64,000 bases of DNA, from NCBI GenBank assembly GCA_930367205.1, contig OV884014.1:75867104-75931103 (forward strand), read 5' to 3'. A model generated the notes under the pieces. It did not search any database. It was given only the letters and a program-made list of their open reading frames with translations, and was not told the origin of the DNA. This DNA is from Acanthosoma haemorrhoidale. Lineage: Eukaryota > Arthropoda > Insecta > Hemiptera > Acanthosomatidae. Below, one piece after another: positions 740 through 64,000 of the stretch. Position 1 is the stretch's first letter, and every line of letters starts with the position of its first letter. The translations under genes were made by a program, and so were the position numbers.

Positions 740-872
740 CTGATGGAAAGAGCCGCTGGTTCTAGCGGTGGTGGGGATGGTGCGCTGGAGCCTGTGCTTC
801 CAGCTTCGTCGTCACCGGAGCCGGAGCAATCTTCCTCTTGAAGTCCTGCTGGAGCCTCTCCTTCTCCTTCCC
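740..872 (-). CDS. Candidate internal coding exon of an unidentified minus-strand gene
   Basis: On the minus strand this 133-nt GC-rich stretch is bounded by an acceptor (CCACAG before 872) and a good donor (CAG|GTAGGG after 740). One frame is open from end to end, entering in phase 1 and leaving in phase 2. It reads as an acidic, Gly/Ser- and Pro-rich linker that starts EGEGEAPAGLQEEDCSGSG, runs through a DDEAGSTGSSA stretch and ends near PPPLEPAALSI. The other two frames contain stops. Base composition differs sharply from the AT-rich flanks, as expected for an exon. Such low-complexity segments are common in transcription factors and in the stalks of surface proteins, and the SGSGDDE run also resembles a glycosaminoglycan attachment site. 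No domain is present, so I assign no function. The acceptor's pyrimidine tract is weak. Alternative: a regulatory block with a chance open frame. Confidence 0.5.
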
Positions 873-879
873 CTGTGGC

Positions 880-1987
880 ATAACATCAAAGCATCATAAG
901 CAGGTGCGCAACACCGTTGTATAGAAAAATAAAAGTAAAATAGCCTATTAAAGTAAGGAATCGCTAGAATCAGTGGTACCCCTAAACGTTAGATAATTGT
1001 CGATGCTGTTGGGGTATTTTAGAAGCTTTAAATAGGAATAGCAGCTCCGTTGGGGCCACTGCGTGGAATGGAACTCCTGTTCCAAGAAAAAGAAAGAACT
1101 CTTTCTCTAAAGTATATCGCGGCCCGATCAGAATTGGAACTAGTAAACGATCAAAGGGAAATGGTATTATTTTTAAGAGCTTTCCCTTAGATCCCAATCA
1201 TTATGATCTTACATTTGTCGTTGGCGGAAGGCCGCTTCGTCGTTTGGCAATCAATAGTTAAATTGGTGTCGTCTTCAGGAAACTGTCAAGGGAAGTTAGT
1301 TTAAGTGATATGATGGCTCTTTTACAGATTTTTTTTCTGTTTCTTTGTACCTAGTATGAAAGCTGGTGTAGGCTACAGCGTACTACCCCGAGGCGCAGCG
1401 TTCAATTTTGAATAGAGAACGACAAACTGCATAGGACGAGACAAAGGGAAAGCGGATACATGGAATTTACTATAGAGGTAGGATCCGATAATGAAAAGCC
1501 TGCTATAATGAGTTCAATATCCCAGTTGGATGGTGGTGTGGGGGAGGGAGCGGCCTGTAGTGGACAAATTGGCTACAGTTCTCTTCTCTCTTTGCCGTTG
1601 GCGTTGAGTCCGTTTGAGAGTGCAATATTATTTGTAAGTGACTCCGATTACAGCCCAGAGGATGTCAACTGCTTTATTAGCACGCTAATGGGAACCATTC
1701 GTACAATGTTCACAGGACGGAAAACTAACCAGTCCATTTCGACAATCAGAGTATGAATTGACAATGTTCAAAGAAAATATTTCGGCAGACCTCGTACTGG
1801 TCCGCATTATATCATATCCGGTTCGAATCAAATCAATGAAGTCAAATTTCCGCAATTTATATTCAAAAGCTTGAATTTATATTATATTTCGAACATTTAT
1901 ATTACTCCGATACCAAGATTCTCCAGCGGTACTTATTTCCTTGTCCACGGTATCATCACTATTGTAGGCTAAATAGTCTTCCCGAAT
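880..1987. other. Non-coding stretch before the satellite
   Basis: Mixed-composition sequence. A plus-strand open frame of about 98 codons at 1460-1756 has no recognisable domain, no composition shift and no splice or promoter context, so I treat it as chance. No repeat copies were recognised here. Confidence 0.45.
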
Positions 1988-4900
1988 CAGAAACCCTTAA
2001 ATTAATCTGGTTGTGGTTTATATTCTCTTTAACCAATAACCATCCAGAAACCCTTAAATTAATCTGGTTGTGGTTTATATTCTCTTTAACCAATAACCAT
2101 CCAGAAACCCTTAAATTAATCTGGTTGCGGTTTATATTCTCTTTAACCAATAACCATCCAGAAACCCTTAAATTAATCTGGTTGCGGTTTATATTCTCTT
2201 TAACCAATAACCATCCAGAAACCCTTAAATTAATCTGGTTGCGGTTTATATTCTCTTTAACCAATAACCATCCAGAAACCCTTAAATTAATCTGGTTGCG
2301 GTTTATATTCTCTTTAACCAATAACCATCCAGAAACCCTTAAATTAATCTGGTTGCGGTTTATATTCTCTTTAACCAATAACCATCCAGAAACCCTTAAA
2401 TTAATCTGGTTGCGGTTTATATTCTCTTTAACCAATAACCATCCAGAAACCCTTAAATTAATCTGGTTGCGGTTTATATTCTCTTTAACCAATAACCATC
2501 CAGAAACCCTTAAATTAATCTGGTTGCGGTTTATATTCTCTTTAACCAATAACCATCCAGAAACCCTTAAATTAATCTGGTTGCGGTTTATATTCTCTTT
2601 AACCAATAACCATCCAGAAACCCTTAAATTAATCTGGTTGCGGTTTATATTCTCTTTAACCAATAACCATCCAGAAACCCTTAAATTAATCTGGTTGCGG
2701 TTTATATTCTCTTTAACCAATAACCATCCAGAAACCCTTAAATTAATCTGGTTGCGGTTTATATTCTCTTTAACCAATAACCATCCAGAAACCCTTAAAT
2801 TAATCTGGTTGCGGTTTATATTCTCTTTAACCAATAACCATCCAGAAACCCTTAAATTAATCTGGTTGCGGTTTATATTCTCTTTAACCAATAACCATCC
2901 AGAAACCCTTAAATTAATCTGGTTGCGGTTTATATTCTCTTTAACCAATAACCATCCAGAAACCCTTAAATTAATCTGGTTGCGGTTTATATTCTCTTTA
3001 ACCAATAACCATCCAGAAACCCTTAAATTAATCTGGTTGCGGTTTATATTCTCTTTAACCAATAACCATCCAGAAACCCTTAAATTAATCTGGTTGCGGT
3101 TTATATTCTCTTTAACCAATAACCATCCAGAAACCCTTAAATTAATCTGGTTGCGGTTTATATTCTCTTTAACCAATAACCATCCAGAAACCCTTAAATT
3201 AATCTGGTTGCGGTTTATATTCTCTTTAACCAATAACCATCCAGAAACCCTTAAATTAATCTGGTTGCGGTTTATATTCTCTTTAACCAATAACCATCCA
3301 GAAACCCTTAAATTAATCTGGTTGCGGTTTATATTCTCTTTAACCAATAACCATCCAGAAACCCTTAAATTAATCTGGTTGCGGTTTATATTCTCTTTAA
3401 CCAATAACCATCCAGAAACCCTTAAATTAATCTGGTTGCGGTTTATATTCTCTTTAACCAATAACCATCCAGAAACCCTTAAATTAATCTGGTTGCGGTT
3501 TATATTCTCTTTAACCAATAACCATCCAGAAACCCTTAAATTAATCTGGTTGCGGTTTATATTCTCTTTAACCAATAACCATCCAGAAACCCTTAAATTA
3601 ATCTGGTTGCGGTTTATATTCTCTTTAACCAATAACCATCCAGAAACCCTTAAATTAATCTGGTTGCGGTTTATATTCTCTTTAACCAATAACCATCCAG
3701 AAACCCTTAAATTAATCTGGTTGCGGTTTATATTCTCTTTAACCAATAACCATCCAGAAACCCTTAAATTAATCTGGTTGCGGTTTATATTCTCTTTAAC
3801 CAATAACCATCCAGAAACCCTTAAATTAATCTGGTTGCGGTTTATATTCTCTTTAACCAATAACCATCCAGAAACCCTTAAATTAATCTGGTTGCGGTTT
3901 ATATTCTCTTTAACCAATAACCATCCAGAAACCCTTAAATTAATCTGGTTGCGGTTTATATTCTCTTTAACCAATAACCATCCAGAAACCCTTAAATTAA
4001 TCTGGTTGCGGTTTATATTCTCTTTAACCAATAACCATCCAGAAACCCTTAAATTAATCTGGTTGCGGTTTATATTCTCTTTAACCAATAACCATCCAGA
4101 AACCCTTAAATTAATCTGGTTGCGGTTTATATTCTCTTTAACCAATAACCATCCAGAAACCCTTAAATTAATCTGGTTGCGGTTTATATTCTCTTTAACC
4201 AATAACCATCCAGAAACCCTTAAATTAATCTGGTTGCGGTTTATATTCTCTTTAACCAATAACCATCCAGAAACCCTTAAATTAATCTGGTTGCGGTTTA
4301 TATTCTCTTTAACCAATAACCATCCAGAAACCCTTAAATTAATCTGGTTGCGGTTTATATTCTCTTTAACCAATAACCATCCAGAAACCCTTAAATTAAT
4401 CTGGTTGCGGTTTATATTCTCTTTAACCAATAACCATCCAGAAACCCTTAAATTAATCTGGTTGCGGTTTATATTCTCTTTAACCAATAACCATCCAGAA
4501 ACCCTTAAATTAATCTGGTTGCGGTTTATATTCTCTTTAACCAATAACCATCCAGAAACCCTTAAATTAATCTGGTTGCGGTTTATATTCTCTTTAACCA
4601 ATAACCATCCAGAAACCCTTAAATTAATCTGGTTGCGGTTTATATTCTCTTTAACCAATAACCATCCAGAAACCCTTAAATTAATCTGGTTGCGGTTTAT
4701 ATTCTCTTTAACCAATAACCATCCAGAAACCCTTAAATTAATCTGGTTGCGGTTTATATTCTCTTTAACCAATAACCATCCAGAAACCCTTAAATTAATC
4801 TGGTTGCGGTTTATATTCTCTTTAACCAATAACCATCCAGAAACCCTTAAATTAATCTGGTTGCGGTTTATATTCTCTTTAACCAATAACCATCCAGAAA

Positions 4901-5134
4901 CCCTTAAATTAATCTGGTTGCGGTTTATATTCTCTTTAACCAATAACCATCCAGAAACCCTTAAATTAATCTGGTTGCGGTTTATATTCTCTTTAACCAA
5001 TAACCATCCAGAAACCCTTAAATTAATCTGGTTGCGGTTTATATTCTCTTTAACCAATAACCATCCAGAAACCCTTAAATTAATCTGGTTGCGGTTTATA
5101 TTCTCTTTAACCAATAACCATCCAGAAACCCTTA
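1988..5134. repeat. 57-bp satellite array, 55 tandem copies
   Basis: The unit begins cagaaacccttaaattaatc and is 57 bp long. Positions 1988-5122 are 3135 bp, exactly 55 units, followed by a 12-bp partial copy (cagaaaccctta). Copies 3-55 look identical. Copies 1 and 2 share one C-to-T difference (ttgtgg for ttgcgg). Because 57 is 19 codons and neither strand has a stop in one frame, giant open frames run through the array on both strands (about 1060 and 1078 codons). These are by-products, not genes. Each unit contains an imperfect dyad (ctgg...ggtt / aacc...ccag) that could fold. The near-perfect homogeneity points to recent expansion. The true length could be longer if the assembly collapsed copies. 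Confidence 0.97.
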
Positions 5135-6247: not shown

Positions 6248-6400
6248 TGCAATAATGATTCTACATATATGAAACTATTTACAAAAGGTCATTATGTTTC
6301 CTGTAGCTTGGCTACGTTTTATACAATGTCTAATTATTTACATTACGATTTGCGCTTGTAATAAAAGTACAATGACGTACATTGTACATTAATTTTTTGA
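6248..6400 (+). repeat. Dispersed repeat family B, copy 1
   Basis: This shares the ordered blocks 'ctatttaca', 'gtcattat', 'cctgtagcttggctac', 'ttttata' and 'gatttg' with 38700-38850 (same strand) and with the reverse complement of 40530-40680. Divergence between copies is moderate. It is probably the 3' part of an interspersed element, type unknown. The 69-codon open frame over it is not considered a gene. Confidence 0.65.
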
Positions 6401-7584: not shown

Positions 7585-7865
7585 GACATTATGGCCCTTA
7601 ACAACAAGCCTCTGACGGGCACCCATCACTGCTATCTGCTATATAGAGAGACTCTATGCTCAGCCTTCAGTGGACTCTCACCACTGCACCACAACATTTC
7701 CACCTCTACCGAGGCTTCCCACACTCCGTAATTCCCTCACTCCACCTTCAAAATGGTACTCCTAGTAAAAGGACCCGCTCACCCCAAATAAATTCCTTTA
7801 TTTTTCCCCTTATCCATAATCTTAAAAATTTGAGAGCTAAGAAAAAAAAAAGGAAATACAAAAAT
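7585..7865 (+). repeat. Dispersed repeat family C, copy 1
   Basis: About 270 bp that aligns by eye with the reverse complement of 58498-58790 along its whole length. Shared ordered blocks are aacaacaagcctct, gtggactctcaccactg, a Pro-rich-looking tract, 'cctagtaaaaggacc' and a 3' 'gagagctaagaaaaaaaaaa'. The plus-strand open frame at 7656-7874 lies inside the repeat and is not a gene. It may be the end of a non-LTR element or a non-autonomous element; no terminal repeats were seen. Confidence 0.75.
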
Positions 7866-15029: not shown

Positions 15030-15490
15030 GATATTTGACTCGACGGGAGGAAGAACACCGAAGGCAGGCTTACATTGACAGATCACCATCGATACATCGA
15101 CATCCACAGCGCCGAAGACAGATTATCGATATTTGTCACCATCGAGTTGATAGACTATCGCTCAGAGCGACCTCTCGTCAGCCGGTAAGCGAGCCACCAT
15201 CAGTCAACTCCAGGGCCTTCCGTCTTCCTATCCTGCCCGATTCCAATTTGATGATAAGGCTGAGTTCGTCACCATTGTTTTTGAGGGGGTCTTTGTCATC
15301 TGGAGTGATAAAGAACTAAAGGGACCTTTGTGATTGGCCCTCGTGGGTTCTTCGCCTTAATTAAAACTGAGGTCGACGCCGTGTAGCTCCAGGAAGTCGG
15401 AGGAACGAGGAGTCAGATACCATTATTACGCAGGCTGCCTCTGCCCTTCCTGCAGATACGGAGGTTTCAAAGTCTGTGAAGTATTTAAGA
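15030..15490. promoter_or_regulatory. GC-richer block with repeated ATCGA words
   Basis: This includes TATCGATA (15124-15131) and ATCGATA (15088-15094), which resemble the insect DRE promoter word, plus ttgacag near 15077. The 94-codon plus-strand frame has no domain. It is listed as a possible enhancer or promoter only. Confidence 0.25.
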
Positions 15491-16235: not shown

Positions 16236-16410
16236 CTACGGAGAGTGGTGGACTTCCCAAGACCCCGCTTTCTCTTTCGCACCACGTGGATTTTGGAGGT
16301 ATCTGGGCTGTTTGTAACTTTGGTATGAATGAGAACATGTATCACAATTACTTATTCCCCAATAAGGCAGATTGTAATTTTATCACAATAAAGAAGTTTC
16401 TATACAATAA
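16236..16410 (+). mobile_element. 3' tail of a non-LTR retrotransposon, copy 1
   Basis: It matches 32643-32850 in order: 'ggacttccc', 'ccgctttctctt', 'gtggattt', 'tctgggctgt', 'gtatgaatgag', 'aattacttattgcc'-like, 'aggcagattgtaatttta' and 'cacaataaag'. The AATAAA-type signal near the right end and the 5' truncation are typical of LINE tails. No poly-A tail remains on this older copy. Confidence 0.75.
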
Positions 16411-31090: not shown

Positions 31091-31477
31091 GGATCAACGT
31101 CACAGCCCTGTGACGGACGTATTCTGTACTAGCTGACGAATTATATTACAATATCTCCTCTCCATTTCCTAACCAAGGTCTTATATTAGCACGCGCAAAC
31201 AAAAATATGAAAAAATCGTGTATTTATAGTAATTTAAAAAGTTTAAAATATGTTCATCAAACGTCAAGAAAATTATAATTTGTATATGTTTATGTTCTAG
31301 TGATAGAACAGACATCAATTATTAGAAATACCCCGCAATGTTGATTGATCATTCAAGTTCTGTTTCGTTTATGTATATTATTAACTAATGTCTTTAATCC
31401 CAATATAATAAAACATTTACGTATTTTCCTGTCGACTCCATAGTTCATCCAATTTTGAGTTGTTTTAATTTTCAGAA
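31091..31477. other. AT-rich sequence, nothing recognised
   Basis: No gene or repeat copy was seen. Confidence 0.45.
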
Positions 31478-31505
31478 ACTTACCTGCAAACAAAGAAAAA
31501 AACAC
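31478..31505 (-). promoter_or_regulatory. Ratchet-type recursive splice site (zero-length exon)
   Basis: On the minus strand, a T-rich tract (TTTTTTTC then TTTGTTTG, about 31503-31487) runs into CAG|GTAAGT. The acceptor AG ends at 31484 and the donor GT begins at 31483. The 3' and 5' splice sites are therefore fused with no exon between. This is the known insect ratchet-point layout: polypyrimidine tract, CAG, then GTAAGT. An A-rich branch region (attaat, atcaat) lies just upstream. The strand agrees with the exons at 50149 and 740-872. CAGGTAAGT occurs only here in my reading of both strands. Confidence 0.65.
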
Positions 31506-31689
31506 TATTAATTATTGATTAATAACGTTAAAGGAATACTGTGTAAGTAAATTCAAAAATACAATTTTTTTTTTTCATTGAACAAATAAACTACATAGAC
31601 TAATAAATTGTACAATTCAAATGTGATTGTTGTTTATAAAAATAAATACACCAATAGGCAGGACATATAAAGAATATACAAGGGCGGTG

Positions 31690-32618: not shown

Positions 32619-32860
32619 TAGGCTAGTATCCGGTGACGCGGCTGACGGAGGAGCGTGGGGGACTTCCCGAGACTCCGCTTTCTCTTCGCGGTGGATTTGG
32701 GGGTCTCTGGGCTGTCTGTAAATATTGTATGAATGAGCGAGTGAATGATGAACTGTAAATATGGTATGAATGAGAGCATTTATCTTAATTACTTATTGCC
32801 TTATAAAAGGCAGATTGTAATTTTAGCACAATAAAGGAATTTAACTGAAAAAAAAAAAAA
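32619..32860 (+). mobile_element. 5'-truncated LINE tail with poly-A and target-site duplication
   Basis: Second copy of the element at 16236-16410. It ends cacaataaaggaatttaactg plus a run of about 13 A. The 12-bp word aatagttcaata stands on both sides (32607-32618 and 32859-32870; the first two A of the right copy could belong to the tail). This is the hallmark of target-primed reverse transcription. The copy has an internal ~40-bp duplication of the 'ctgtaaatattgtatgaatgag' region. The minus-strand 145-codon open frame over it is not a gene. Confidence 0.85.
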
Positions 32861-38041: not shown

Positions 38042-38158
38042 TATTTTAAACAAACATATCATCCCTTCATATGCAAGTGGTATTTTAAACAAACATATCA
38101 TCCCTTCATATGCAAGTGGTATTTTAAACAAACATATCATCCCTTCATATGCAAGTGG
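38042..38158. repeat. 39-bp minisatellite, three perfect copies
   Basis: Unit 39 bp, starting tattttaaacaaacatatca, at 38042, 38081 and 38120. The copies look identical and are followed by a short 'tattttt' start of a fourth. Since 39 is 13 codons, open frames persist on both strands; they are not genes. Confidence 0.95.
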
Positions 38159-38699
38159 TATTTTTTTCAGAGAACATTCTCTTGTGAAATACACCACACG
38201 ATAAGGATAGTCAAACATATTTATCAACCAAGGCTGGTTTACGATTAAGCACCCACTCTAAAAAATCAATTCTCAGTTTGAAACAGAGAAATGGCTATAA
38301 GAACAAATGAATTACCATCCTCAACAAAATAATTGATGTAATTATTGTAATGAAAGTATCCTCGTAATTACTAGTAAACGGCATTTTGACATACTAGGCA
38401 TGTTTGATTCAGTTTCAGTTAATAAGAAATAATATTAAATGTGTCAAAAACGTGTAATTGACATGAGGTAAGCATGTAAATAAGTACTAGTTTATAAAAG
38501 AACGCGTGTATGGAATATTTTAGTGTCACTACTACATCGAAATAATTGTTGTTTAATTCTTTTTATTTTTGGTAATCTTATTATTCTTTTTATCTTATCT
38601 TATATTTCTTTGTACGTAAATTTATGTATTTTGAAAATTGGCATCCCAAGGATCTATGTCGACTGTCGATGTAGATATATATATTTTTCCCCATATTAT
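38159..38699. other. AT-rich sequence, nothing recognised
   Basis: No gene or repeat copy was seen. Confidence 0.45.
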
Positions 38700-38850
38700 T
38701 AAAAATTCAGATTCTATATAAATGAATCTATTTACAATAGCTCAATATTATATGCCCTGTAGCTTGGCTACATTTTATAAAATATTTAACTGTTTTACAC
38801 TGTGATTTGCGATGTACATTATACATCCATTGTCTATACGTGTTTAAAAT
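38700..38850 (+). repeat. Dispersed repeat family B, copy 2
   Basis: Shares 'atgaatctatttaca', 'cctgtagcttggctac', 'attttata' and 'cactgtgatttg' with the other two copies. It is closest to the inverted copy at 40530-40680. Confidence 0.7.
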
Positions 38851-38892: not shown

Positions 38893-39090
38893 TTTTTTTT
38901 TTCCCAAAGCTCTCACATTTGAGAAATCAAGGAATGAGGGAAAAATAAAACGAAATTATTTGGGATAATTGGATCCTTTTACTAGGAGAGACCTATTTGA
39001 AGGTCGGGTGAAGGAATTGAGGAGTATGGGAGACCTCAGGTGAGGTGTAGCTGATTTCGGCACAGTGGTGAGAGTCCACTGGAGGTTGTA
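38893..39090 (-). repeat. Dispersed repeat family C, copy 3
   Basis: Inverted relative to copies 1 and 2. Ordered blocks are a T-run, aaagctctcacatttgag, ggaatgagggaaaaataaa, 'ccttttactagga', gaaggtcgggtgaag and cagtggtgagagtccactgg. The left (distal) third seen in copies 1 and 4 is absent. Confidence 0.75.
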
Positions 39091-40529
39091 AACTAAATTT
39101 TAAAACTAATTGTGTGAATGAAATAATACTCAGAAATGTATATGGTATAACAAAGGGGCCTAACAGATATGAATCCACATACTCAGGTATGATATGATAT
39201 CAACATAAGCAGATTCCCAATCAAACAATCCCAGCAACCAATACACGCCATATTTTATTTTGGTTAATAATACTGCAAAAATAATAAAAAAAAAAAAAAA
39301 AATGATTTTGATAAAATCGTCATTTCTGATTTCATGAGTTAGTGTATTCCAAGTAGGAAAAAAGGTGGTTGTGTTCGTTTCAAGCAACGAAATTCCCCTT
39401 TTAAAACGATTACTCTTTTTTCAAAAAATATTTCTTGGTCATTATAGCCCGACTGCATGCTTCCTGTAGCTAACCTCACTATTACTCAGACCAACGAAGC
39501 AAACGAAAGACAACTAATGGGAGATTACGGGACAATATCGGACCATCAAAAGCCAGGAAACCGATTCTCTCGATAATTTTTCCCTCTTTTATTCCCCGTA
39601 GAGGGGAGCAGGATTGTTTTCTTCAATTTTTTTTCCCACCCATTAATTATTAAAACGCCCATTTCCTGACTGTCCTTAATTTTCGAATTATCCTTGCCGT
39701 GACCTGAAGCAACTCGACCGTAGGCAGGAAGCCGTTCGTAGATTATTAAATCGATTCTTCACAGCGCCATTGTAGAGTCGATTCTGATTTTCATTCTGTT
39801 ATCATCTCTTTGTGCGACGACTTGTTGAGTTTATTTCAGCTGTACCAAAGAAATGACCAATGTACAAATCTGCATAATACTATGAAAATATACCGCATAT
39901 AATGAATATACCATAATACGAAAAAAAAACACTAACATCGGAATATGAAAAGGGGAAATTTCACAACCAAATAATTCATAACCGATAATTGGAAATGCCA
40001 AGTGAAATTGATAGGTGATGAAGAATCACGCACGATGTCTGACAAGGCCATTGTTGTCGACTCCTGCATATCAGCCACATGCATAAAACTCGTACACACA
40101 TATGATTTATCAGAGCTGACTTTGATCGAAATATTATTCCTCTGATATTATATATTATATTAATACACACGTATAAGGATAAATTGAAACATGGGAAATG
40201 ATGTTCGGATAATGATTTTTAATCATGAGCAGAGGAAATAAATTAAATGCTCTCGAGGCATGGTTATTCAGTTGAAATTATACACAAAAAAAACACGTTG
40301 GTAGACGATGAAATATTAAATAAATACTATAAAGCCCGTGTAACTTATAATAATTACTATTATAATAAATTGTCTTCTAATATATTAAATTTTAGACTGC
40401 AAAACTGATTTTTTGCATTGGAAATCCTCACCACCCTCCCTACAACAGACTGTCGGGAAAAGTTATGATTATTTTGTTAGATGTAAGTTTAAGCCTACGA
40501 TTCATGAGATGATCCCCATCCCTTTTAAA
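39091..40529. other. Mixed sequence; GC-richer patch ~39480-39790
   Basis: The patch holds cagaccaacgaagc and cgattctctcgataat words. Otherwise AT-rich, with no gene or RNA. Confidence 0.4.
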
Positions 40530-40680
40530 CGTGTGTAGACAATGAATGTATGCTATATTTTTGTAACAATCACAAATCACAGTGTAAAATTATTAAAAAT
40601 TGTATAAAATGTAGCCAAGTTACAGGACATATAATGACCTACTGTAAATAGATTCATTTATGTAGAACTGATTTCCATAA
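40530..40680 (-). repeat. Dispersed repeat family B, copy 3
   Basis: Inverted copy. Read on the minus strand it gives ataaatgaatctatttacag, then gtcattatatgtcctgtaac, ttggctacattttatacaat and cactgtgatttgtgatt. Copies 2 and 3 face each other about 1.7 kb apart. Confidence 0.7.
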
Positions 40681-40880: not shown

Positions 40881-43259
40881 AAGCCAAGTTCCAAATTTTT
40901 ACTATTTGCTTATATTTTTTCAGGTGAGATAACTTTGACTGCACAATACAGATAGTGAAATAGTTCGCCATTAGTTAGAGAATTATAGGATATCACAAAC
41001 TATGGCTTGTTTCTGGCTGGTATTCCATTTTAAAAAGATTCCCAACATAATAGTCATTTTAGTAAAGATGTATCGTTCCTCGTGGCGAAATAAATTTGTG
41101 TTGCACAGAAATTCTGAGTAGTGCTTTAGTTTGAAATTGTTCGAAGAATATCTTTGTTTGGCTGCTCTATTGAAACGGTGCAACCTTGCTCAATCAAGCT
41201 TGAGCCGCTACAAGCAGCAGTGGATGACTGTTGACTGCTGAGAGGTGAGAGAAAACTATTGTGCACTTCAGCACCGGCAGAGAAGCCGGCTTTTGGCAGG
41301 ACCGAGCTCAAGCAACTTGAAAAGGATTTTTTCCTGCCGGAGCTAGTTTCGATTAATCTTGGCCCGTTGAAAAGCCTCTCTGACGTTTCAAGTCATTTAA
41401 TGACCTAAAAAGGTCCTTTTACCTGACTGCCGTCAGTCAGACCTGCCTGGAGGGACGAGGAGGGGATAGGCTCTCTGGGGCAGCAGCACCCCCCCCCCGT
41501 AATTAAAAACTTAAATGGAAACCTGAAACGTAATCAGGGTCCTTCCGTTTTGACTGGATTTTATTTTCCGTCTGACTTGGCTGTCACAATCTTGACTGAT
41601 TGTCACGGGCCCGCGCTCACTCGAAACAGAATAGCCGCTTTTTTACCCACAACTTTTATTTTTGTTTCCGTTTTTTATATTCGTTTTGTTTTCGCTTCTT
41701 TTTTGTTCTTTTTTTTAGCCGGCGGATTCATACTGTGATGACCGATAAACTTTACACTTGGGCAATTTTTTTTTCTCGTTATATTTATCTGATACCATTT
41801 TGTAATTATAATCGAGTAATTAGCATTCATGCTCCAATATTATCAACCTCAATACACGACAAAAAAGACTGATCACCAAAAATAGCTAAATAAATTTAGA
41901 CTAACTGCAGACACAAATAGTGACTGAGAAAGTTGCAGTTCCAACAAAAATTTATTTTCTTTTATGTAGAAAGGAGGATATATTATTTTACATAGCTATG
42001 AGGTGATTATAATTCTCCTATATATCTTAATGTAGTTAAAATTATTCAACCTATATGAAATGAATAAGGTTTACGTAACACCTTGTAAGGTATATGTCAA
42101 GAAAGGTAAGTATGTGACAAAACTCAAACACGTTAAAAATTTAACACAGAAACCCAAAATGTTACATGAAATCAAGTTTTAAGAGATATTAATATCAATG
42201 GTGTATTTGTTTCTATGTTGTTTTTTATGAGAATATTGCAGCTTCTTTATTTTTAAGAAAATCGAGACGTCTCGTGATTGACCGAGATTTATTTTGTCTC
42301 TGTCGTTCATTTCATTTAAATACATATCTATAAATACTATTAAGGTCATCATTCCTATGGTATACTGATTATAGATTTATATAAACAATATCGAGGCCAC
42401 TAATCCACGTATCAACTGTTTTTGCAACTAATTTCCAAATTGGAGTTACTCTAAATTGAGAACATGGTTTTTTGTTTTTCAGACCACCAACGATGCAAAA
42501 CTCTGCTTCCATGAACTCTTATAGTGGCGTGCCCACAAATTAAAATACATTTTTTCTTGACGAATCGCAAACAACCTCACAGCGAACATGATAACTATCC
42601 CATAATTCACACAAGTTACAATTACAATATTTCATGACGTATGTGAAAATTATAGGCAGTAACCCTGAGGTTGTGTGGATGATGTAAATATCAGTGAGCC
42701 TGTGATTCATTCATGTTGATCTTTAGCTGTGCGAGTATTGTCAAGGCAACGACACAACTATGATTTATATTTAACAATCTTTTTACCGGCTTGATTTATA
42801 TTCCCTGCCGTGGGAGGCTGTAATTGGTTTTATTTAAAGTATTGTAAAAGAGCACTATTGGTGTGTGTGAGTGAGTGTGCATACTACAATGAAACGCAAT
42901 ATTTTGTACCAATCGATTCCAAATGTTTCGTTTCTACATCTCGCCGACAGCCGAATAAATTTCGGCGGGCAAAGCGAACCGATGAGCTCGTAAAGAAGTG
43001 AAAAAAGAGGTCTCGGAGCTGTTCCTTGAGGAATGCCATCCGAGGCATCTCTTGAGCCCCGAAGCCTGGGAATTGTGAGGCATTTCGTGCATATCTCAGA
43101 TCGCTTCGTGTATTTCATTTATATCTTTTCAAATGTAATGTCCTTTCCTCTTCAATGTGGCGTTTATTACCGCCTTATTATTTTATGTTTACATACTACA
43201 GACGGTGACTAATGGCACAGTGTGTAGTCAAGAATATCAATTAAGATTGACCACTGCCC
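40881..43259. other. Mixed sequence; GC-richer patch ~41280-41640 with C10 run
   Basis: C10 at 41489-41498, tgaccta and ctgactgccgtcagtcag words near it (a small dyad). A smaller GC-richer patch lies at 42940-43100. Open frames here are short and domain-free. Confidence 0.35.
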
Positions 43260-50148: not shown

Positions 50149-50191
50149 CGAAGTATCGGAGGGAGGCGGAGAGCAGGTGAAACTGAGCCAT
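50149..50191 (-). CDS. Candidate first coding segment of the minus-strand gene
   Basis: On the minus strand an ATG at 50191 opens MAQFHLLSASLRYF, then meets a strong donor: TTCG|GTGAGT, exon end 50149, intron first base 50148. Upstream in the same frame there is a stop (TAG) about 150 nt before, with no other ATG between, so this is the first in-frame start of the transcript as drawn. The exon leaves in phase 1. The exon at 872-740 is open only when entered in phase 1, so joining gives an uninterrupted frame. The start context is not ideal (T at -3). No protein family is recognised. Alternatives: a wholly untranslated exon or an unrelated regulatory island. Confidence 0.3.
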
Positions 50192-50620
50192 CAACAGGGC
50201 GTCTCCCGCCAGCGCCGATACAACACCTAGAGAAGCCACACTGACTGAATTACTATAGCTCGCAGACAGAGAGATTCGAGAGAGAGGCAGCGACGATCCT
50301 CTTGCGGCTGAGGTTCGTCGGGTACTGGGGGGTTGGAACCACCCCTAGCGCCCCCCACCCCTGCCGCCGGCGGTGGTGGGGGTGCGTGGGCCACGTGCCG
50401 GCCTTTCGGTCGGTCTGTTGGCTCGCTTCTTCAAGTGGCTCCTCTAGGCCTTGTGCTCTATCCAGCCACTTCCACTCTCTCTCTCGGATGACACGGCTAA
50501 TTAATAGAGTGTGCTGCTTAGGGGATCGATATGAATTCTTAACGGCTCTCTTCGGCAACGATCTAGGCCTGAAGGAAAGCACCTCAAAGAAAAAGTAGTC
50601 GTATAACTCTCTAATAGAAC
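50192..50620 (-). promoter_or_regulatory. GC-rich 5'-UTR and promoter candidate
   Basis: Dense CpG and G/C (ccgccggcggtggtgggggtg; ccacgtg E-box near 50391), ctctctctctcgg, and TCAGTCAGT initiator-like words near 50236-50246 on the minus strand. The 125-codon minus-strand and 98-codon plus-strand frames overlap and have no domain. Composition and the GTGAGT donor at its end make it the best transcription-start candidate in the window. Confidence 0.35.
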
Positions 50621-58497: not shown

Positions 58498-58790
58498 TTT
58501 TTTTTTTTTTCTAAGCTCTCTAGTTAGAATTTGAGGACGAGGGATAAATATAAAATATTTAGGGTGATAGGATCCTTGTACTAGGAGGACCTGCTTGAAG
58601 GTGGTGTAAGAGGAGTAAGGAGTGTGGGAATCCTCGGTGGAGGTTGATTGTTACGGTACAGTGGTGAGAGTCCACTGGTGGCTGGGCCTAGAGTCTTCTC
58701 TAGGCATGTAGTGCAGTCGTAGTTAGTCTGATATCAGTGAGGGTGCCCCTTAGAGGCTTGTTGTTGGTGGGCCAAGCGCCGTGATGGTAA
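58498..58790 (-). repeat. Dispersed repeat family C, copy 4 (longest)
   Basis: Starts with T13 and aagctctctagttagaattt and ends in aagcgccgtgatggtaat. In inverted order it matches all of copy 1, including gtggactctcaccactg and aacaacaagcctct read on the minus strand. This is the best guide to the family's extent. Confidence 0.8.
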
Positions 58791-60420
58791 TAAAATTGTC
58801 TCTAACAGAGGTATTTAAAAAGAATGTCAAACTGTGATAAGACATCGCTTGGGCAATCATTTCCGATTCAGGTAATTAATTTCGGTTGTTAATATTCGTG
58901 ATAAAATTGTTAAAACGACAAGCAATAAAGTTAGATCGAAGTATAGCTAACAAGCTATGCATATGGGCCGTTCCTAGCCCTATCAGATAAAAGCGATGCT
59001 GGGAGATACGAGAAGATCCCTTGCGGACTCACAGAGCAAATATACGACTGACTTAGCAGCTCGGCCCACTCCGTCGGAGAGGCCTGGGCCCCTAATGGAT
59101 TTTATATACCCGTAAAGCTTTATGTCGAATGGACAACACCTAACAGAGACACAGTACAGCCGGATAGTGGGCATAAAGCGACTTCCATCCGACGAATAAA
59201 AGAGAAAAGAAAAAAAAAAGAGTAGAAGAAGCGGGAGGAAATGGACCAATAAAGAAGGAGGAGGACACGAGAGGAGGTTAGTATTCACCCGCCAGCGAGG
59301 TATAAAAGTTTATTGGTCTCATAGCTCTGTGGCTCACGGCATGCTAATGCCCTTCACTACTGATTCGTTCATTATCTGTCTACCGTTCTATGGGCCGCGG
59401 GATCTTCTCTTCTTCCATTTTATCTTTTTTCATTTATTTATTTATACTCTACAGCGGCTCTTTAGTGACCGGTGCTAGCTCACAGAGGCCCACTCTCCAG
59501 GGGGACATTATAGAACGAGATGTCGCTATTGAAGAATACTGCGTGTTGGACAGAAAATACTCCTTGCAAGATGATTAGATAACCACATGGACTATACACC
59601 TGCCAAAGAGGAGAAATACTTCTCATAATTACTTTATAAGCATTAAATGCAGTAAATGTTACTTAGAAACAATTGTAATAGGTAAATGAATTGAATCGAT
59701 TCCCACTAAAGAAATATTTTTTAATGTAAAAACGCAGAGGAAGTAACCTTGCTTTTATGAACAAAGAAATACTTCATTGATTTTTAAAGTGTACGATATA
59801 ATGTGTCTATATTCTTAAACCATTTCCTACCTAACATTTTCTCTTCCTTTGAACTACGGCGAAATCAATTTTAGCCCGAATATATTAACAAGTTCGTTGC
59901 ACACACCACATTTCATGGGATTAAAAATGGTACTTGATTAGACTCAGACTAAACTCGGAGATATTCAAGTAGACATTTTGAACCTGGACTTCAACTGTAG
60001 TAGGCATTCAACCAAGTTAACCATGCTCTTTCATTTTGAGCTAGGCCGTCGTCATCAAGGGTCATTCTCAATCCGACCGTTGCTCGATCGGCATTCGTAT
60101 TACTGGTGGTTTAGTGGCGTGTACATTAACAAGCTTACATCTAGATAAATTTTAAGAAATTGTACAGGAGAGACAAAAACAACCCCAATATTGTTGACGA
60201 TGAAAATAATCATGGACACGGGTTATTTGCAAACGCACCAAAACTATGTACCAAAATACAAACGCCTCGATTGGAGTTGTTTTTTCTCTATCCAGCAAAA
60301 TTATATGTATCTTTCATGTAACATAATGACTAAGCTCAAATTTAAATGTTCAGCATTTAAATTTGAGATACAACTACACATTTTTTTTGGAAAATCTCCT
60401 ACAGTAAACTACGAAATTTC
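58791..60420. other. GC-richer patch ~58980-59520, then AT-rich
   Basis: The plus strand near 59300 reads gtataaaagtttattgg, TATA-like, but no downstream exon can be supported. 59580-60400 has nothing recognised. Confidence 0.35.
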
Positions 60421-60970
60421 ATTTTGTCAACCCGTATGTGGGATGGATGCTGCTGAGAAACGAGCAGCTATAAAGAGGGCATTGACCACTGAATACAAAC
60501 ATGGCCGAATAAACCCAACGGAGAAAGAGGATTCATAAGAGACGGGCCGAGAAGGACACCTAAGCCGAGTGACAAAAAGGATTAAGGACCCGAAGCCGGG
60601 AGCTGAAGCCGTGAAAAAATATTTGATAGCATGGCAGGAGAGAGAGAAGTATGGCTGCCGGAGGGGTAGCAGGGTTATAATATGCCCCATGGTCTGATTT
60701 ATTGGCCTATAAAGTATTATAATTAAAGGAGGGTGTCACTCGGCTGCCATATCTATAAATCTAGGCTCCTTGCCGACCCTACTAAATCAACTAGCCACCA
60801 CCTCGTGTAGCAGCACTCCGGGCCCTTCTTTCATCTCTGGGGGGTGATCTGCCCTAGTGCGCTGTAGGGTATGCTCCGTTTGCGCAGCGTCTGGAGGGAC
60901 CTATCCGCGAGCTGAGTCATTCATGAACCGGCCGGAGTCATTGTCAATGATAGATAAGAACCATTCTGTC
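60421..60970. promoter_or_regulatory. Candidate regulatory block
   Basis: A GC-richer block containing gatttattggcctataaag, ttataattaaagg, gctgccatatctataaat and gagtcattgtcaatgatag (Sox- and TALE-like words). Opposing short frames lack domains. Confidence 0.3.
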
Positions 60971-63900
60971 AGAAAAACTGTAACTGAAGACACAACTTTC
61001 GCAAAACCAATTTTTCGCTTAGGTGGTAGTCTCAATAAGTGTGATGCTTGAAATGGACTAATGGAAAACATAGCGTCTACAAGATATATCTAGTTAGAAA
61101 AAAAAATAATATCGATTCCTACCTACGTGCCACAGGAAATATCGTTTGTCATAGTCACATCCTCCTGGACATCCAATGTCTTTGAATTTGTTTTGAGTGA
61201 AGGTGTTTCAAGGTATTCTAAGATACTTAAACAGAAACATTAATAGACGATTATTTGTAACGAGCCTTTGAATTTTTGGTTGAAGGGTTTCTTGATACTC
61301 TGCTGGTTGTCGTGTTCAACGCCACCTACAAGTGGGTGTTCATGAAATCAGATTTGGTCTAAAATTCATGAAAGATGTACCCTCCGTCACCCATTCATTA
61401 CGGCGCATTATGACACACTTTACCACGATGTTTTTTTTAACTAGGGCGTACTTAGAAGGTAATTCGAAATAGTTTATAATGATTTATGAAATCAATACCA
61501 ATTGTTGATCAATGTTTTTTTTATGTAATATATCTTAATACTTCTACTTCACGTTTTGTCTAGATTCATTAATGTACAATATGTAGTTACAATATTCTAA
61601 GAAAAATGGCAACAAAAATGATTACAGCTACTGATTACCCTTCAAACCTTCCAACAAATGAGGGGATATTGGGAAGAGAAGTTTTAAGATTACCTACTGG
61701 GGGTGTAGAGAAGGGGTTGCAGTATTTAGTATTTGCTAGGGTGACCAGCGGCAACTGCTGGTGACTTCAAAGAGCTCCTATCAAAAGGCACAAGTCTTGT
61801 GTCCAAGTGTTAATAAGTAATTGCCTCAGAGGTGGGGGAGGGCAGCCATCAAAGTTGGATCGGACCCCCCCCCCCCACCCTTTAGTAATACCTAAGGCCA
61901 ATCTCACTAACTCTAATATCTGATCGGCCACTAGTTCTTGCCTGTATAGGTGGCTTTACCTTCAGCAGCCGGTGGTCATTCCCAACTTGAGGATTAGGAT
62001 CTCAAATGCGTTATTCAGGATAAAAAAAAGTAGGACAAAGTTTCAAGAAAATTACTGAAATAAACATTCAAATAAAAAAAATGATGAATCCAATGAGAGC
62101 AATCCAAGAGAGAAACCTCATTATATTGCATAGCGCTGCAAATCCGATCTCCATTTGAATGCCAGGTGCCTAATGAGATAAAATTTGCATAGGTTAGGCG
62201 TCCGTGAAACTTTAAGCTTTCGAAATCTTATTTGTTCTGGAATTGATAAAATGTTTCAACGTTTATTATCTTCATATAGCTATAGTCACCGACATGAAAT
62301 TAGACACTTGGGATGAAGGGGCTACTTTGCGCGGGGGACTAATCACTAATTTGCTCATTGCTTAATGGTTGACATTATCGAAGTAAAGAGATCACGTGGC
62401 TAGAAGAGAAGTAGTGCACAGAACGGCAACAGGGCTTGCCATGTACTGCGGGTCTCAAGCTTCTAAATTCGTGATCGCAACTATAGTTGCTGCCTAGGTA
62501 TTACAGAAAGTAAAAACTTTTTTTAAACATATTAAAAATAGTCTTTTTTTTTGTTTTAACAATATCTTTCTACGGCCACAGGAAAAATGCAGACTAAATT
62601 GGGCCAAATTAAATTTAATTTCCTTGTTCTTCAGACAGATGCTTCGGTTCTAGGTCATTTTGGCTAGAGGTTAGAAACAACATGTGCCATGCGACTTAGA
62701 GTTTGAGTCTTTGAGGTAAGCCTATCTCTACATTTAATCACTCTTAAATAGTACATATGAAGAGAAAGGAAAGAGAAGACAATTTAAATGAGGTAACAAA
62801 GCGGTGACAGACAGGACACAGACAAAGGATAATTGTAGCGGAGGAAGAGATAGAAACAGCGGGGAGGTGGAGGGGTCAGTCAGCACTGAATATGCAATGA
62901 GACAGTAATACAGGCTAGGCCGAAGGAGTGGGGAAGCCCTTGTCCAAATAATCCTGGATCTTGGATATTGCCGATGGTTCTGCAACCAGGAAATGAACTC
63001 CGCTTATCAACTCTTGGACGTCTTGGATCTGGACCCTCGCTTTCCCTCCTCTAATTCCTCCTAATCCCTAATCTTCTCCCTGGATCCGCTCCTTCATTCC
63101 ATTTCCATGCTCACGGCTCTGCCATTCGCTATGCGATATTGTCTAGCTCTAGGATTGAATAATTATGAAATAGTTTTATGTAGGCACATAACAGGTGTTT
63201 GTTATGAGATACTTTTGGTTCTATAACTTGGAGTTGTGCCTTAAAATATCCACTTTCTCTACCCTAAAGAAAGAGAAAAAAAATCAAGCCAAAATATACG
63301 AACATGGACCAATCAGCAATTGATTATTTGAAAATGTGAACAAATTAAAACACGTGAATACTCAACTTTTTCCTTGGCAAAGCCTTTGTAAACAATCTAA
63401 TTACTATGCATTCACACAAGGCAAGTAAACTAAACCCACAAGGAGGTACTGGTCAACCGAAGCTTGTTGCCATAGTCGGTATCAGGAACTGAGATGTTAG
63501 TCTGATCAGCATTAGCGTTAACCTAAACCAAAAATGTTTGTAATCGGATCCACAACTTTTTAACTATATTTTATAATATGTAATATGTGTTTGTAGTTAA
63601 GTGGACTATACTATCATTGTATCAAAGTGTATACAAATCCTCTGTTTTGCTTTGGGGTTACTTATCATAAAATTGTAAAGAAAGAATCAATAAATAAATT
63701 ACATTTAAGTGTTACTAATTTAAAAAACAAAACATTCCCTGTCATATTGAGAATGGAATCAAATTAAAGAGTTTAATGTGTTAGAAGTTTGATAATGCGT
63801 TTCTGGTACATTTGACTAAATCACTTATCCAGAATAATAAGGATTACTTGACTTCTTTTGAGATGGATTTGATGACTTTTGAGAGTAGAGTTCCAATGTA

Positions 63901-64000
63901 AAACGAATTCACCATAAAACTATAAAAAAAAAGCATAAAGCACATAATGAAACCACTAACTATCGGAGGGGCGGTATGAGAGTTATGGCAGGCAGAGGCA
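60971..64000. other. Mixed AT-rich sequence, no gene supported
   Basis: A C12 run lies at 61865-61876. A short dyad accagc/gctggt lies near 61745-61762. Purine-rich DNA lies at 62760-62880. No repeat copies or RNA genes were recognised to the window end. Confidence 0.45.

What the first reader, a model, noticed from the sequence alone, without database searches (positions are those of the whole stretch)
31478..31505. Perfect ratchet-point sequence for recursive splicing on the minus strand
A T-rich pyrimidine tract leads straight into CAG|GTAAGT, an ideal acceptor fused to an ideal donor with no exon between. This is the form established for recursive splicing in long insect introns. With the composition seen by eye, the 9-mer CAGGTAAGT alone is expected about 0.4 times on both strands; one preceded by a clean pyrimidine tract is far rarer. 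It is on the same strand as the two best exon candidates and sits between them, dividing the putative intron into about 18.7 kb and 30.6 kb.
Basis: partly seen in the sequence, partly recalled or inferred. Interest (0 to 1): 0.8.

Follow-up and report, generated by a model that had tools for sequence, protein, structure and literature searches.

The report
Candidate recursive-splicing point, long intron
A near-perfect splice acceptor fused directly to a near-perfect splice donor sits in what looks like a very long intron of an insect-like gene, and is most likely a stepping stone for removing that intron in pieces, a mechanism known from fruit flies but untested for this gene.

Summary
On the minus strand a T-rich tract leads into CAG|GTAAGT, junction 31484|31483. 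The 9-mer alone is ordinary (0.45 expected), but the 26-nt acceptor-plus-donor scores 87% of maximum, best of either strand, with a Markov expectation of 0.001-0.002 per window. Independently, the top internal-exon candidate of the window lies on the same strand at 872-740 (3 of 300 shuffles reach its score), and the proposed upstream exon ending at 50149 has a matching phase. Best reading: an intronic ratchet point of the Drosophila kind in an intron of about 49 kb or less. Weak points: no gene or taxon could be named; no relative or surrounding genome was reachable; the donor of a possible cryptic exon downstream is poor; no RNA data. The plus strand holds two weaker look-alikes where about 0.3 are expected, so the Markov odds flatter the site somewhat. 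Known kind of element; new candidate member; modest interest.

The parts
31484..31505 (-). acceptor half of the candidate ratchet point: T-rich tract and CAG; last acceptor base 31484
   Evidence: acceptor 11.25 bits; 3 acceptors >= 11.2 on this strand
31478..31483 (-). donor half GTAAGT; first base of the regenerated 5' splice site is 31483
   Evidence: 13.31 bits, best donor on the minus strand, next 10.66
31507..31531 (-). stretch with three branch-point-like YTNAY words, A at -25, -36 and -45 from the junction (31508, 31519, 31528)
   Evidence: consensus match only; positions worked out
31421..31483 (-). hypothetical cryptic RS-exon of 63 nt ending at a weak donor TAC|GTAAAT (1.96 bits); entered in phase 1 it has no stop
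   Evidence: donor no better than background
740..872 (-). best internal-exon candidate of the window, 133 nt, enters in phase 1, leaves in phase 2, acidic Ser-Gly-rich peptide EGEGEAPAGLQEEDCSGSGDDEAGSTGSSAPSPPPLEPAALSI
   Evidence: 3 of 300 shuffles reach its score; acceptor only 5.8 bits; no protein relative found
50149..50344 (-). proposed upstream exon: frame open back to 50344, ATG at 50191, 14 codons plus 1 base, donor TCG|GTGAGT (9.7 bits)
   Evidence: 5' end not defined; not among the 25 best internal-exon candidates, a scan that cannot see first exons
15198..15299 (-). possible further 102-nt exon, phase 1-1; if real, the intron with the site is 34.8 kb and the site lies near its middle
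   Evidence: second-ranked exon candidate (23.0); 104 of 300 shuffles have a top score of 23.0 or more, so not significant alone

Best explanation
The site is an intronic ratchet point of a minus-strand gene. Shown: the composite motif, its rarity, and its position between two same-strand exon candidates of compatible phase. Inferred: after transcription passes 31484, the donor of the upstream exon (50148) is spliced to 31484, removing about 18.7 kb. The junction recreates ...G|GTAAGT, a strong donor at 31483, which is then spliced to the next acceptor (873, or 15300 if the 102-nt exon is real). No base of the site remains in the mRNA. A poor donor 63 nt downstream may briefly define a cryptic exon that loses to the much stronger ratchet donor.
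For: Best composite site in the window on either strand, 87% of maximum; expected 0.001-0.002 per window by Markov models. The best donor of its strand coincides with one of its three best acceptors. Branch-like words at -25, -36, -45. The top exon candidate of the window is on the same strand, and exon phases agree. Only short matches elsewhere in the window, so it is not an obvious repeat. In flies 63% of introns over 40 kb have a high-confidence recursive site and 7% more a medium-confidence one (PMC6110457, passages). RP-sites are enriched in >50 kb introns over the opposite strand 21.7-fold in fly, 8.0 in beetle, 4.0 in bee (PMC2773006, passages).
Against: No good donor for a cryptic RS-exon: the best within 20-300 nt is 4.0 bits, and 72% of 2000 random 280-nt stretches have one as good. 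No Pfam domain in the minus frames and no protein relative of the main exon, so the gene is unproven. The acceptor of exon 872-740 is weak (5.8 bits), and a first scan on splice scores alone (sum over 16) listed neither proposed exon. Strand skew is too small to prove minus-strand transcription (T-A skew 0.014 between 5200 and 50148). Two look-alikes of 16 bits or more on the plus strand, where about 0.3 are expected, show that such sites arise here more often than the model says. Pieces of 18.7 and 30.6 (or 16.2) kb exceed the 9-15 kb typical in flies (PMC6110457, passages). Conservation untested.
Confidence: 0.65

Rival explanations
1. Chance juxtaposition: an unused acceptor-donor look-alike in non-coding DNA, picked out because a reader looked for striking words.
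For: The 9-mer alone is expected 0.45 times; real complementary-strand DNA of fly, bee and beetle introns has 0.10-0.12 RP-sites per 100 kb (PMC2773006, passages), more than my Markov models predict; the plus strand has look-alikes at 40924 and 8018, two where about 0.3 are expected.
Against: The full composite is far rarer than the 9-mer and lies on the strand of the best exon candidate.
Confidence: 0.21
2. An expressed RS-exon or ordinary small exon: the acceptor at 31484 leads into a 63-nt exon (31483-31421) that is kept in some mRNAs, as with the 51-nt microexons of Ubx.
For: 63 nt is a multiple of three; entered in phase 1, as the 50149 exon would require, it is stop-free (KFLKIKTTQNWMNYGVDRKI) and leaves in phase 1, which fits the 872-740 exon.
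Against: Its donor is very weak (1.96 bits against 13.3 for the ratchet donor); so short a frame often stays open by chance; Drosophila has fewer than 50 expressed against more than 500 intronic sites (PMC8605326, section 0 part 1 of 6).
Confidence: 0.09
3. A splice site of a different minus-strand transcript (non-coding or antisense RNA, or an unseen gene), used only as acceptor or only as donor.
For: Gene identity and intron borders are inferred only; acceptor-like sites exist upstream, first exon bases 31538 and 31690.
Against: By reading, the exon 31538-31484 would carry stops in all three frames and contain the T tract itself; both halves of the site are near-optimal, which single use does not ask for.
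Confidence: 0.05

Closest known systems
Drosophila intronic ratchet points (zero-nucleotide recursive splice sites; Ubx, kuz, Bx and several hundred others)
   Same: Tract + CAG|GTAAGT with no exon between, matching the published consensus (y)nncag|gtaagt (PMC2773006, passages); apparently a single strong site in a very long intron.
   Different: Use, conservation and host gene are not shown here; no convincing downstream RS-exon donor; organism unknown.
Ubx m1/m2 type expressed RS-exons
   Same: Acceptor followed at once by a donor, with a possible short in-frame exon (63 nt here, 51 nt in Ubx; PMC8605326).
   Different: The exon's own donor is very weak here; inclusion unknown.
RP-sites predicted in bee, beetle and mosquito introns over 50 kb (PMC2773006)
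   Same: Same computational class of site in non-drosophilid insects.
   Different: Those were strand-enrichment counts over annotated introns; this intron is not annotated.

Membership tests
intronic ratchet point (recursive splice site) | juxtaposed strong 3' and 5' splice motifs around AG|GT | tested here: met
intronic ratchet point (recursive splice site) | branch-point-like sequence and pyrimidine tract upstream | tested here: met
   (consensus only)
intronic ratchet point (recursive splice site) | lies on the sense strand of a very long intron (flies: most introns > 40 kb have one) | tested here: inconclusive
   same-strand exon candidates at 50149 and 872, matching phase; gene not identified
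intronic ratchet point (recursive splice site) | position near the middle of the intron when single | tested here: inconclusive
   38% from the 5' end if the intron is 50148-873; 54% if the unproven 15299-15198 exon is real (arithmetic)
intronic ratchet point (recursive splice site) | downstream cryptic RS-exon donor weaker than the ratchet donor | tested here: inconclusive
   weak donors at 63 nt (1.96 bits) and 152 nt (4.03 bits), not above background; an intron-definition route without such an exon has also been proposed for flies (PMC6110457, passages)
intronic ratchet point (recursive splice site) | core conserved in related species | not testable with these tools
   no eukaryote DNA collection offered; the genome search did not complete (16 tries, last)
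intronic ratchet point (recursive splice site) | splicing intermediates: ratchet junction reads, saw-tooth, lariats | not testable with these tools
   no RNA data
expressed RS-exon (Ubx m1 type) | downstream donor able to compete and exon included in mRNA | tested here: inconclusive
   63-nt in-frame candidate with a 1.96-bit donor; inclusion not testable

The most novel reading that the evidence does not exclude
The ratchet point carries a regulated, in-frame 63-nt RS-exon that adds 21 residues just upstream of an acidic Ser-Gly-rich segment in some transcripts, so one site serves both stepwise removal of a roughly 49-kb intron and a choice of protein form, as in Ubx but in a different gene.
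Probability: 0.08. Interest if true: 0.5.

Novelty: new member of a known kind. Interest (0 to 1): 0.33.

Why it matters
Among the papers seen here, insect ratchet points are mapped experimentally in Drosophila; for other insects I saw only a strand-enrichment count in bee, beetle and mosquito (PMC2773006, passages). A single strong, predictable site in an apparently long intron gives an easy test (one RT-PCR across 50149|31483) of whether recursive splicing is used in this lineage. If true it adds one example to a known mechanism; it changes no principle.

Tried and rejected
Searching for the gene by domain: the three minus frames of the window, in stretches with X at stops, gave no Pfam family; I ran no positive control for that way of searching. 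The plus strand was scanned only at 59000-64000 and in 6 chosen ORFs, given together with 4 minus ORFs (two matches below the curated cut-offs, taken as chance). Protein relatives of exon 872-740: 52 candidates sharing words, none with E <= 10. Relatives of plus ORF 1412-1756: 7 candidates, none with E <= 1. That database may hold few eukaryotes, so these blanks say little. No Rfam match at gathering thresholds, no tRNA (ARAGORN used the bacterial code).

From memory I considered a heparan-sulphate proteoglycan (glypican or syndecan) for the Ser-Gly acidic exon; no call supports it, and I drop it as an identification. One paper search for 'recursive splic' with dally, syndecan and glypican (at least two of the four) found 1,912 papers; in the 8 listed, 'recursive splic' occurs 0 times.

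Plus-strand sites 40924 and 8018 were not taken as equal rivals, because each alone is within what the models give (0.16-0.33 per window at those scores); together they are a mild excess, which I count against the Markov control. On re-checking I lowered the main reading from 0.68 to 0.65 and raised chance from 0.18 to 0.21 for that reason. A first exon scan by splice scores alone (sum over 16) did not list the two proposed exons; the second scan, with a coding term, put 872-740 first. Strand skew and AATAAA counts did not decide the strand. The splice weights were written from general knowledge, not trained on this organism.

Full report
What is there. On the minus strand the sequence TAATTAATAGTGTTTTTTTCTTTGTTTGCAG is followed directly by GTAAGTTTCTG; the junction lies between 31484 and 31483. 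This is the only CAGGTAAGT in the window. The 9-mer alone proves nothing: shuffles give 0.45 on average and 36 of 100 hold at least one.

How unusual it is. I scored every position on both strands with a 26-nt composite of a generic insect acceptor (20 nt) and donor (6 nt). The site gets 20.6 bits, 87% of the maximum. The next are 40924 (71%) and 8018 (68%), both on the plus strand; the next on the minus strand is 59599 with 54%. In 318 Mb of simulated sequence for each of three Markov orders, 2, 2 and 5 sites were as good, which is 0.0008-0.002 per 64-kb window counting both strands; smaller runs gave none. Cautions: the weights are generic and recalled. At 16.1 bits or more the models expect 0.26-0.33 sites, yet the window has two besides this one, so real DNA makes more such sites than the models do. 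Published complementary-strand counts say the same: 0.10-0.12 per 100 kb in fly, bee and beetle introns (0.000 in mosquito), at an 80% threshold with another matrix (PMC2773006, passages). The same paper gives, for sense strands of introns over 50 kb, 2.2 (fly), 1.03 (mosquito), 0.81 (beetle) and 0.48 (bee) per 100 kb.

Taken apart, the site has the best donor of the minus strand (13.3 bits, next 10.66) and one of three acceptors of at least 11.2 bits on that strand. Branch-like YTNAY words have their A at -25, -36 and -45. Against the rest of the window, the surrounding kilobase has only short matches.

Is there an intron around it? A first scan on splice scores alone listed neither proposed exon. 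I then searched both strands for internal exons (60-900 nt) by acceptor, donor and coding likelihood against local composition. It encodes an acidic Ser-Gly-rich segment; no relative was found, in a database that may hold few eukaryotes. The other proposed exon ends at 50149 with donor TCG|GTGAGT (9.7 bits); a scan for internal exons cannot judge a first exon, and it is not among the 25 listed. Its frame that leaves one base over is open back to 50344 and has an ATG at 50191 (position read), which fits the phase-1 entry of exon 872-740; such agreement happens by chance one time in three. A 102-nt candidate at 15299-15198 ranks second and is phase 1-1, but is within the null (104 of 300 shuffles have a top score of 23.0 or more). 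With it the intron would be 34.8 kb and the site near its middle; without it 49.3 kb with the site at 38%. Flies place single sites near the middle and cut introns into pieces of typically 9-15 kb (PMC6110457, passages); both versions here give larger pieces.

What argues against. Work in Drosophila says that intronic ratchet points need a cryptic exon of about 50 nt, whose donor is generally weaker than the ratchet donor (PMC8605326, section 0 part 1 of 6), although an intron-definition route has also been proposed for flies (PMC6110457, passages). Here the candidates are a 63-nt exon with a 1.96-bit donor and a 152-nt one with a 4.03-bit donor; 72% of random stretches offer as much as the better. 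This neither supports nor excludes. The 63-nt version keeps frame and is stop-free in the phase that the upstream exon would impose, which is the basis of the novel case, at low probability. No domain was found in the minus strand, strand skews are tiny, and the whole-genome tool did not complete, so neither the genome around the window nor relatives could be read.

Verdict. I put a working ratchet point at 0.65, chance at 0.21, an expressed small exon at 0.09 and another transcript's splice site at 0.05. It is a new candidate of a known kind. That the organism is an insect is my inference from low GC (0.34-0.41 in 4-kb steps), mild CpG depletion (0.85) and large non-coding spans; no call establishes it.

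Noticed in passing
1988-5134: Tandem array of a 57-bp unit, 55.2 copies, 99% matches; since 57 = 3 x 19 it is open on both strands (1135 and 1076 codons with flanks). Looks like a recent minisatellite, not a gene.
   Followed up: partly
986-1261 and 1412-1756, plus strand: Two neighbouring ORFs with protein-like composition (by eye); no Pfam match for either, and no protein relative for the second (the first was not searched). Possibly remains of a gene or mobile element.
   Followed up: partly
40924 and 8018, plus strand: Two weaker acceptor-donor juxtapositions (TTTTTTCAG|GTGAGA, 71%; GAAGACAG|GTGAGT, 68%); together a mild excess over the 0.26-0.33 expected. The second could be an ordinary donor, or either could mark plus-strand transcription.
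   Followed up: partly
7600-7851 / 58501-58765 / 38893-39088; 6259-6369 / 38704-38849 / 40523-40674; 16240-16399 / 32650-32842: Three dispersed repeat families, 73-84% alike, in mixed orientation: probably old mobile-element copies.
   Followed up: no
38042-38164: 39-bp unit, 3.2 copies, 100% identical.
   Followed up: no
50149-50550, minus strand: GC-rich stretch before the proposed upstream exon's donor, with TCAGTC/TCAGTG initiator-like words near 50246; could be a promoter and first exon (by eye; motif recalled).
   Followed up: no
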